This document shows, one piece after another, positions 33,224 to 39,568 of a stretch of 64,000 bases of DNA (position 1 is its first letter; every line of letters starts with the position of its first letter). Source of the DNA: Deinococcales bacterium (GTDB taxonomy: Bacteria > Deinococcota > Deinococci > Deinococcales > JAAFIG01); contig JANXTZ010000011.1 in NCBI GenBank assembly GCA_025352125.1, positions 1 to 64,000 of the forward strand, in the 5' to 3' direction. A model generated the notes under the pieces. That model worked only from the letters and a program-made list of their open reading frames with translations. It was not told the origin of the DNA and ran no database searches. The translations under genes and the position numbers were made by a program.

Positions 33224-34069
33224 TTAAGGCGCAACCGTTCGCAATTCGACACTCCAACCCTCGCCGCTCGAGACGCCAAAATGACCCGCAAAACTCGAGC
33301 AATTCATGCCGAGGCTGGCGTTCAGGAGGCTGTTGACGTACACCAGGCGCTCGCCCAATTTCACATGCCCAAAACTTGGCACGTAAGGCAGGGTTTCTTG
33401 ATAAACCTGTTGATGGTGTTTGAAGACCCGCACCTCGAGGTGATCGCCCAGTTTGACACCCAAGTCGTCCAATAAATGCTTTGGAATATTCGTCCAGACG
33501 TTGCCAAATTGAATGTCCAGCACCGGAATCACGCCGCGTATAACGTTCTCAACCCGTGTCGGGGCTTCAATCTCGAGTCGGGTGATTTTGGGCAGTGTTT
33601 CGCCAATCTTGCCAAACTCGAGCAAGCCAGACGCCAGTTTTGCCCCTACAAAAGCGTACAAATCGCGTCCCAGAAAAGTGTAACTCTCGCTCGAGCCTGG
33701 AAGGCGGTGCATGATCTCGTCAATTTCAAACGTTTCGAGCGGACCGAATTCGTCCTCGATCAGCGTCAGCAGACCATTGTCTGGACAAACGTAAATCCTC
33801 CCACCCGTATCTTTTGCCGCCACACTTTTGCGGTTCGTGCCAACGCCAGGGTCAACCACGATCACGAAGACCGTGCCAGCCGACCAGTACGGCGCGGTTT
33901 GCCGCAACCTGTACCCACCCTCGAGAATGTTGAACGCCGGAATCTCGTGGGTCAGATCAACCACGTCCAAAGTTGTGTTGACCCCTCGAGCCACGCCCTT
34001 CATGGCTGCCACCGCGCCATCACGAAGTCCAAAATCGGTCATCAAGACCAACGCTGATAAATTGTTCAT
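33224..34069 (-). CDS. SAM hydroxide adenosyltransferase/DUF62-family protein
   Basis: LVLMTDFGLRDGAVAAMKGV, VIVVDPGVGTNRKSVAAK; start MNNLSAL preferred. Confidence 0.9.
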   Translation of the reverse strand: MNNLSALVLMTDFGLRDGAVAAMKGVARGVNTTLDVVDLTHEIPAFNILEGGYRLRQTAPYWSAGTVFVIVVDPGVGTNRKSVAAKDTGGRIYVCPDNGLLTLIEDEFGPLETFEIDEIMHRLPGSSESYTFLGRDLYAFVGAKLASGLLEFGKIGETLPKITRLEIEAPTRVENVIRGVIPVLDIQFGNVWTNIPKHLLDDLGVKLGDHLEVRVFKHHQQVYQETLPYVPSFGHVKLGERLVYVNSLLNASLGMNCSSFAGHFGVSSGEGWSVELRTVAP

Positions 34070-34302
34070 ACTGACACCCTCGCACCCGAGCGACTTCAAA
34101 TGTCGGCGGCTAGCCAAGCGGAATCGAACCGTCGGCTGCCACAAGCGCGATGAAGGAGTTTAACCCGAATTGTGACCCGAGAATCAAGTTCTCCGAAGTG
34201 ACGCCTTGGAGTTTGAAATTTTCAAAGTGACTGAAACGAACCCAGCTCGAGATTGTGGTTTCAAATGACCTTGAATTCACAAATCTTTGCTATCGTTTTG
34301 CC

Positions 34303-35883
34303 ATGAAACCCAACGCTCGACTGCTGGTGGTGACGGGACTCGGTTTGGCATTGCTTGGCGGGGCGATGGCGGGCGTTCGACTTATCAGTGTTGGCGAAAC
34401 CCGCCCAATGTCAGCGCATTCGCACAGCGCCTGGCAGGGCAATTTGAACGCCAGTTTGCCGCCAGTGCTGCCCTACATTCCCACCTACTACGGTCACGTC
34501 CGTCCGATTCTCGAGGCAAAATGCACGGGTTGTCACACCGATGGCGGCATCGCGCCGTTCAGTTTGACCGATTCTGAAACCTCTACCTCCCACGCTCGAG
34601 CCGTTCAGTTGGCGGTGCAAAGCAAAAGAATGCCGCCGTGGTTGCCAGCAGGGGAGAGTCCAGCGTTTAAAGACGCTCGGGTGCTGACCGACGAAGAGAT
34701 TGCGATTCTGGCAAACTGGCAGTGGGCGGGTTCGCCCCTTGGGAAGCTCGAGGATGCCGCGCCGGTGGTCGCAAAAGCGGTTCAAGCCAAACCCGATTTA
34801 AGCGTGGACACCGGACGCGATTTTTCGCCAGACCGCAACCTGACCGACGAATACCGTTGCTTTCTGATTGACCCAAAACTCGAGAAACCGCGCTACATCA
34901 CGGGTTACAACATTGTGCCTGGCGACCCGAGCGTGGTGCATCACGTGATTTTGTTCTCGATTCAGGGCGTAACCATTCAGGAAGCCAAACAACGCGAGGC
35001 GGACAGTGACGCTCGAGGTGGCTGGACTTGCTTTGGCGGTCCAAACGTCGGCAATCAGGCACTGCGTGACGCGGCAAGCGACGCCGCCAAGACGGGCGAT
35101 ACCACCAAAGCCGAGGATGTGCTGGGTTACGCGGGTTCATGGGTTCCAGGCTCGAGCGCGATTCAGTTCCCCGAGGGCACGGGCATTTTGCTCAAACCTG
35201 GCACACAACTGGTGATGCAGGTGCATTACAACCTGCTGGCTGCCAAAGCCGATAAGGTGCTCAAAGACCGCACCACCGCCCAGTTTTACCTTTCCCCAGA
35301 GGGTGCAACCCTCAAACGTTTGGGCATGGCGGGCGCTGCCGCCAGCGTCGAAATTCCTTGTGCTGGAACGTATCCAACCGACTCGAGCGACCCTTGCAAC
35401 CGCGATGCGGCGTACAAAACGGTCAGCAAATACCAAGAGCCGTGGTTGACCAAAGTTTTGCAGAGCGGTTTGATGGCAACGGTTTGCAAACACGACTTAC
35501 CAGTCAACGGTGTAAATTCAAATAAAGTCGTGACGCATTGTGATTTTCCAGTCAGCAGAGACCTGCTGGCGATTGGCGCCCAGGGACACATGCACACCAG
35601 GGGTTTGAGTGTCAAGCTCGAGATCAACCCGAACAATCCAGAAAAACGCATCGTCGCACTGGACATTCCGCACTGGGATTTTCACTGGCAGAGCGCGTTT
35701 TATTTTGAGAAACCCTTCAAGATTTTTAAGGGCGACACCCTGCGGATTACCTGCACCTACGACAACAGCTCAGCCAATCAGCCCTGGATCAACGGCGTCC
35801 AAGAAAAACCGCGTTATATCGTCTGGGGCGAAAGCACCCAGGATGAAATGTGTATTGGAAACATCCAAGGGGTGCGGGAGTAA
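34303..35883 (+). CDS. Copper type II monooxygenase-like protein with N-terminal c-type haem motif
   Basis: RPILEAKCTGCHTDGGIAPF (CxxCH); VVHHVILFS, MQVHYNLLA and GAQGHMHTRGLSVKLE His-rich segments. Confidence 0.7.
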   Translation: MKPNARLLVVTGLGLALLGGAMAGVRLISVGETRPMSAHSHSAWQGNLNASLPPVLPYIPTYYGHVRPILEAKCTGCHTDGGIAPFSLTDSETSTSHARAVQLAVQSKRMPPWLPAGESPAFKDARVLTDEEIAILANWQWAGSPLGKLEDAAPVVAKAVQAKPDLSVDTGRDFSPDRNLTDEYRCFLIDPKLEKPRYITGYNIVPGDPSVVHHVILFSIQGVTIQEAKQREADSDARGGWTCFGGPNVGNQALRDAASDAAKTGDTTKAEDVLGYAGSWVPGSSAIQFPEGTGILLKPGTQLVMQVHYNLLAAKADKVLKDRTTAQFYLSPEGATLKRLGMAGAAASVEIPCAGTYPTDSSDPCNRDAAYKTVSKYQEPWLTKVLQSGLMATVCKHDLPVNGVNSNKVVTHCDFPVSRDLLAIGAQGHMHTRGLSVKLEINPNNPEKRIVALDIPHWDFHWQSAFYFEKPFKIFKGDTLRITCTYDNSSANQPWINGVQEKPRYIVWGESTQDEMCIGNIQGVRE

Positions 35884-35915
35884 AATCACGTGCCTCAAAA
35901 AAAATCAGGAGTGTT

Positions 35916-36227
35916 GTGGTTTCAGTCTCCAACCTCGAGATTATCGATAACAAAGATTTAAATCGTTTTGAAGCTCGAATTCAAGACGAACTGGCGGTGC
36001 TCGAATACCATTCGAGTTCAAACGTCTTGATCCTCAATCATACCCAAGTCCCACAGAAGCTTGAGGGACAGGGTGTGGGCAGTTCTTTGATCAAATTTGT
36101 GCTCGATGAAGCTCGAGTCAACCACTACAGCATTGTGCCCATGTGCCCATTTGTGGCGGTGTACATTCGTCGTCATCCAGAGTACCGTGACCTTGTGCCA
36201 GAACGATTTTTGTACATGGTCAGTTAA
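35916..36227 (+). CDS. GNAT-like N-acetyltransferase (YjdJ-like)
   Basis: VLILNHTQVPQKLEGQGVGSSLIKFVLDEARVNHYSIVPMCPFVAVYIRRHPEY; GTG start after AGGAG. Confidence 0.82.
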   Translation: MVSVSNLEIIDNKDLNRFEARIQDELAVLEYHSSSNVLILNHTQVPQKLEGQGVGSSLIKFVLDEARVNHYSIVPMCPFVAVYIRRHPEYRDLVPERFLYMVS

Positions 36228-36243
36228 ATCTTGAGGTGATGAT

Positions 36244-36648
36244 GTGAAAGCTGGCAAAGCCAATACCAGTCCAGAAATCACCGTGTTTTTTGACTCGAGT
36301 CGCTGCATTCACGCCGCCGAATGTGTGCGTGGTTTGCCTGAAGTGTTCGATGTCACAGCGCGTCCCTGGATTCGAGCCGATCACGCCAGCGCCCAAGAAT
36401 TGATGGAAGTCATCAGCCGTTGTCCGTCGGGGGCATTGCAATTTGAAAATGCGAACGGTGTGCCTGAAATCCCAGCAACGCCCACAACCTTTCGTCTCCT
36501 TCAAGACGGTCAACTCGAGGTGCGGGGCGATCTGTCGTTCACGAATGCAGGCGGCGAAACGATGTTTGGCACCCGCGCGATCCTCTGAACCTGTGGACGA
36601 TCAAACAACAAGCCATTTTGTGATAACAGTCATCAAAAACTGGCGTAA
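36244..36648 (+). CDS. YjdI-like 4Fe-4S/CDGSH iron-sulfur protein with in-frame TGA (36586-36588)
   Basis: ORF to 36588 has the Fer4_19-like part (FFDSSRCIHAAECVRGLPEVFD...ISRCPSGAL). Reading through the TGA gives ...GTRAIL[TGA]TCGRSNNKPFCDNSHQKLA*, a CDGSH motif. Confidence 0.75.
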
Positions 36649-39117: not shown

Positions 39118-39330
39118 ATGATGCCAACAAATCCACCCAAAACGATTGTTGATGAAGCGGGAAGAACGAATGTTCTTTTGTCTCTCGAGGAGTACGAAGC
39201 GATCTTGGAAGAACTCGAGGATGCCCGTGATGCACGAATTATTGCTGAACGTAGACTAAACCATGAAAATTCCATATCACTCGAGGCTTTTGCGGAGGAG
39301 TTGAAGCTTGAGGGGCGAATTTCAGGTTGA
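39118..39330 (+). CDS. Phd/YefM-like antitoxin
   Basis: PKTIVDEAGRTNVLLSLEEYEAILEELED. Confidence 0.8.
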   Translation: MMPTNPPKTIVDEAGRTNVLLSLEEYEAILEELEDARDARIIAERRLNHENSISLEAFAEELKLEGRISG

Positions 39331-39568
39331 ACTTCCAAACCGCGTTCGCAAAGAAATGCGAGCATTGCCAAATGTCATTCTCGAGCGCATCATTGAAGCC
39401 CTAAGAAATTTAGCATTTGATCCGTTTCCGCAAGGGTTCAAAAAGTTGCAAGATCGTTCAGAATACCGAATTCGGGTTGGAGATTACCGCATTTTGTACG
39501 AAGTCGATACCAAAGCTCGAGTGATCGTCATTTCGGCTGTTTTGCATAGAAGTGACGCATACGGTTGA
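39308..39568 (+). CDS. relE: RelE-family toxin
   Basis: VRKEMRALPNVILERIIEALRNLAFDPFPQGFKKLQDRSEYRIRVGDYRILYEVDTKARVIVISAVLHRSDAY. Confidence 0.92.
   Translation: MRGEFQVELPNRVRKEMRALPNVILERIIEALRNLAFDPFPQGFKKLQDRSEYRIRVGDYRILYEVDTKARVIVISAVLHRSDAYG

What the first reader, a model, noticed from the sequence alone, without database searches (positions are those of the whole stretch)
36244..36648. In-frame TGA exactly at the first Cys ligand of a CDGSH iron-sulfur motif
The annotated ORF stops at 36586-36588 after ...GTRAIL. The same frame continues TCGRSNNKPFCDNSHQKLA* to 36648. CDGSH proteins read ...LCRCGxSxxKPFCDxSH, so the TGA replaces precisely the first cluster-ligand Cys. Sequence on both sides is intact and family-like. 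It is either a selenocysteine/UGA-recoded CDGSH protein or a single-base nonsense mutation (TGC/TGT to TGA). Other ORFs in the window end normally at TGA, so UGA is not generally reassigned. I found no convincing bSECIS hairpin by eye, only a weak ATCA...TGAT stem around 36600-36624.
Basis: partly seen in the sequence, partly recalled or inferred. Interest (0 to 1): 0.72.

Follow-up and report, generated by a model that had tools for sequence, protein, structure and literature searches.

The report
Stop codon truncates CDGSH iron-sulfur protein
A small iron-sulfur protein gene carries a single stop codon where its relatives have a cluster-binding cysteine, and because no selenocysteine machinery was found in the genome this is most likely an ordinary truncating mutation (or a base error), not a new selenoprotein.

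Summary
Frame 36244-36645 reads through one TGA (36586-36588) as a two-domain protein, Fer4_19 plus zf-CDGSH, both above Pfam cut-offs. The TGA sits exactly on the first CDGSH cluster cysteine. The selenocysteine reading is not supported. In the window's own genome (92.5% complete) there is no selA; the selB, selD and tRNA-Sec matches are below cut-off, and those examined are IF-2, LepA, a PurM-type segment and ordinary tRNAs. None of 60 relatives has a selA above its cut-off. The predicted fold after the TGA is no more stable than shuffled sequence. RF2 is present, and 13 of 35 other likely window genes end in TGA. Every relative's CDGSH motif that I read has Cys (TGT or TGC) there, including the syntenic orthologue in the same family. 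Among about 140 CDGSH matches in 112 genomes of the phylum, this is the only one with an in-frame TGA. The simplest account is a recent one-base Cys-to-stop change, or a base error in an 84-contig assembly, leaving a 114-aa protein with the Fer4_19 domain intact and the CDGSH cluster site missing. Downstream DNA is still 89% identical to the relative's over 35 bases, so the change looks young. I rate this ordinary.

The parts
35850..36227 (+). GNAT acetyltransferase gene (Acetyltransf_CG, YjdJ-like) immediately upstream; start codon uncertain
   Evidence: Pfam PF14542, 93.8 bits. A similar gene lies directly upstream of the intact homologue in relative G003 (by reading the translation).
36244..36588 (+). 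Truncated gene: 114 aa, Fer4_19 domain intact (residues 10-67), with the first part of the CDGSH domain but no cluster ligands
   Evidence: The Shine-Dalgarno-like GAGGTGA at about 36233-36239 is read directly.
36586..36588 (+). In-frame TGA at the first CDGSH cluster cysteine
   Evidence: Alignment; genome search.
36589..36648 (+). Remnant of the CDGSH cluster motif (TCGRSNNKPFCDNSHQKLA, stop TAA), presumably untranslated
   Evidence: DNA 89% identical to G003 over window 36592-36626.

Best explanation
This is a YjdI-like iron-sulfur gene (Fer4_19 plus CDGSH) downstream of a GNAT acetyltransferase gene. A single-base change turned the first cluster cysteine codon into TGA. RF2 terminates translation there, giving a 114-aa protein that keeps its Fer4_19 cluster domain and loses the CDGSH [2Fe-2S] site. 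It is a recent truncation, fixed or segregating in the population, not a recoding event. Shown: the stop, the homology, Cys in relatives, the syntenic relative, and no detected Sec machinery. Inferred: that the base is real, and that the truncated protein may still work as a Fer4_19 protein.
For: selA absent. The selB matches are below cut-off; the two best are IF-2 and LepA. The selD match is a PurM-type segment. tRNA-Sec hits are below cut-off and are tRNA-Ser, Leu and Phe by ARAGORN. No selA above cut-off in 60 relatives. RF2 present. 13 of 35 likely genes in the window end in TGA. Relatives carry TGT/TGC at the position, and G003 has the same gene order with Cys. Only in-frame TGA among about 140 CDGSH matches in 112 phylum genomes. 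No SECIS-like stability: z = -0.63, 59 of 200 shuffles fold as well. The downstream frame ends four codons after the ligand His, where the relatives continue with G-F or G-W.
Against: The three other cluster ligands (C, C, H) and the KPFCD core are intact, so no decay can be seen apart from the stop and the short C-terminus. Reads were not available to confirm the base. The genome is 92.5% complete, so absence of genes is not absolute.
Confidence: 0.66

Rival explanations
1. The TGA is a sequencing or consensus error in the assembly, and the organism has an ordinary intact Cys-containing gene.
For: The genome is an 84-contig, 92.5% complete assembly. One base separates TGA from the TGT/TGC of relatives. 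The rest of the frame and all other ligands are intact, with 89% DNA identity to the relative just downstream.
Against: No other disrupted frame was noted in the immediate neighbourhood. Substitution errors in consensus assemblies are generally rare (general knowledge).
Confidence: 0.22
2. UGA is read through at low level by a near-cognate tRNA without selenocysteine, so that a small fraction of protein is full length.
For: The stop is UGA followed by A, a context I recall as leaky in E. coli. The downstream frame is intact.
Against: Read-through by tRNA-Trp would insert Trp, which cannot bind the cluster. RF2 is present. No relative shows the arrangement.
Confidence: 0.07
3. A selenocysteine-containing CDGSH protein in which Sec ligates the [2Fe-2S] cluster, decoded by a SelB/SECIS system.
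For: TGA lies exactly on a ligand Cys and conserved sequence follows.
Against: selA, selB, selD and tRNA-Sec not found in the genome. No selA above cut-off in relatives. No stable hairpin after the UGA. No TGA in any other CDGSH gene of the phylum sample. CDGSH is not mentioned in a 2026 review of prokaryotic selenoproteins (PMC13188914).
Confidence: 0.03

Closest known systems
Fer4_19 + zf-CDGSH two-domain proteins (annotated '(4Fe-4S)-binding protein' or 'CDGSH iron-sulfur domain-containing protein'), e.g. Deinococcus and haloarchaeal plasmid copies
   Same: Same length and domain order, 43-48% identical over at least 90% of the query, and the same upstream GNAT gene in relative G003.
   Different: First CDGSH cysteine codon is TGA, and the frame ends four codons after the ligand His.
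E. coli YjdI/YjdJ pair (from memory)
   Same: Fer4_19 protein next to a small GNAT acetyltransferase. YjdI has no CDGSH domain, so a Fer4_19-only product is plausible.
   Different: Here the CDGSH part was present and is cut off by the stop.
Bacterial selenoproteins with Sec replacing a metal-ligand or redox Cys (e.g. (2Fe-2S)-binding CopZ-family forms listed in PMC13188914)
   Same: An in-frame TGA at a Cys position of an iron-sulfur protein.
   Different: No Sec machinery found in the genome, no SECIS-like hairpin, no Sec form in relatives.

Membership tests
Bacterial selenoprotein | Genome encodes SelA, SelB, SelD and tRNA-Sec | tested here: not met
   the assembly is 92.5% complete
Bacterial selenoprotein | SECIS hairpin just downstream of the UGA | tested here: not met
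   Fold no better than shuffles, stem starts over 20 nt after the UGA; no dedicated bSECIS program was available
Bacterial selenoprotein | UGA aligned with Cys in homologues, with conserved sequence on both sides | tested here: met
Bacterial selenoprotein | UGA conserved in other members | tested here: not met
   Only in-frame TGA among about 140 CDGSH matches in 112 genomes; no same-genus genome was available
Fer4_19 family (PF06902) | Profile match over the curated cut-off, entirely before the stop | tested here: met
   79 bits against a cut-off of 24, residues 10-67 of the truncated product
CDGSH / NEET family (PF09360) | C-x-C-x2-S-x3-P-x-C-D-x-S-H ligand set encoded in the product | tested here: not met
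   All four ligand positions (first Cys = TGA) lie at or after the stop; the read-through frame matches at 45.4 bits, but the product as terminated has no zf-CDGSH match

The most novel reading that the evidence does not exclude
The UGA is decoded as selenocysteine, or by another UGA-reading tRNA, to make a CDGSH protein with a selenium-ligated [2Fe-2S] cluster, using machinery in the unassembled part of the genome or not recognised by the known models.
Probability: 0.03. Interest if true: 0.8.

Novelty: already known. Interest (0 to 1): 0.1.

Why it matters
A natural selenocysteine-ligated CDGSH cluster would be a notable new selenoprotein class, but the evidence points to a single nonsense change or base error. 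The case mainly shows that a stop at a ligand cysteine is not enough: about one in six random nonsense changes in this gene would hit a cysteine codon.

Tried and rejected
UGA reassignment was rejected: RF2 is present and TGA is a normal stop. Phage (5 partial matches, Fer4_19 part only), plasmid and PDB searches gave only ordinary relatives. A first translation of the relatives forgot to reverse the minus-strand loci and was redone. A literature search for CDGSH with selenocysteine listed mainly ferroptosis reviews among the top 20 of 67 papers.

Full report
Observation. The frame starting at GTG 36244 ends at TGA 36586-36588 after 114 codons and is open again for 19 codons to TAA 36646-36648. 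The read-through product matches Pfam Fer4_19 at residues 10-67 (78.7 bits) and zf-CDGSH at 89-131 (45.4 bits, cut-off 29.5). Searching the whole genome with zf-CDGSH independently finds this place with one internal TGA, plus one intact CDGSH gene on another contig. In alignment the TGA falls on the first cysteine of LCRCGxSxNKPFCD.

Selenocysteine test. No selA match exists in the genome. SelB matches are all below the cut-off; the two best are IF-2 and LepA. The only selD match is a short PurM-type segment. The tRNA-Sec matches are all below the gathering score and ARAGORN reads them as tRNA-Ser, tRNA-Leu and tRNA-Phe. The genome is 92.5% complete, so loss of all four genes in the gap is possible but unlikely, and none of 60 relatives in the order has a selA above its cut-off. 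Rfam finds only two tRNAs in the window. The 63 bases from the codon before the UGA fold no better than shuffles (z = -0.63; 59 of 200 as good), and the predicted stem begins more than 20 nt after the UGA.

General UGA use. RF2 (prfB) is present, and 13 of 35 likely genes in the window end in TGA. UGA is therefore an ordinary stop here.

Relatives. The four Fer4_19+CDGSH relatives in the order, the genome's own second CDGSH protein, and a further two-motif CDGSH protein all have Cys at the first ligand, TGT or TGC where the codon was printed. The closest taxon with the gene, G003 of the same family, has the same type of upstream acetyltransferase and TGT at this site. Across 112 genomes of the phylum about 140 zf-CDGSH matches were listed. 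Besides this gene only one shows any internal stop (a TAG in G047), and none shows a TGA.

How it probably came about. A third-position change of a Cys codon to TGA explains everything. Just downstream, 35 bases are still 89% identical to G003, and the remaining ligands are intact, so the change is recent or is a base error in the assembly. The frame also lacks the G-F/G-W that follows the motif in the relatives. Of 37 possible single-base nonsense changes in this frame, six hit cysteine codons, so the coincidence with a cysteine is about one in six and with this exact ligand about one in 37.

Function. The terminated product retains the whole Fer4_19 domain (79 bits) and has no CDGSH match. 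E. coli YjdI (from memory) is a Fer4_19-only protein next to a GNAT gene, so the product could still function; this was not tested.

Limits. Reads, same-genus genomes and a dedicated SECIS program were not available. A 2026 review of prokaryotic selenoproteins does not mention CDGSH.

Noticed in passing
window 39118-39568 +: Overlapping small gene pair; the second encodes a ParE-family toxin (PF05016, 43.6 bits) and the first (70 aa, no Pfam match) is probably its antitoxin.
   Followed up: no
window 34255-35883 +: Copper type II monooxygenase-like protein with a weak cytochrome c-like match at its N-terminal part.
   Followed up: no
window 33224-34144 -: SAM hydroxide adenosyltransferase (PF01887 and PF20257).
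   Followed up: no
L001 1501-1641 - (G000:C63:34861-35001): Second, intact CDGSH gene in the same genome (LCRCGHSKNLPFCDSSH).
   Followed up: partly
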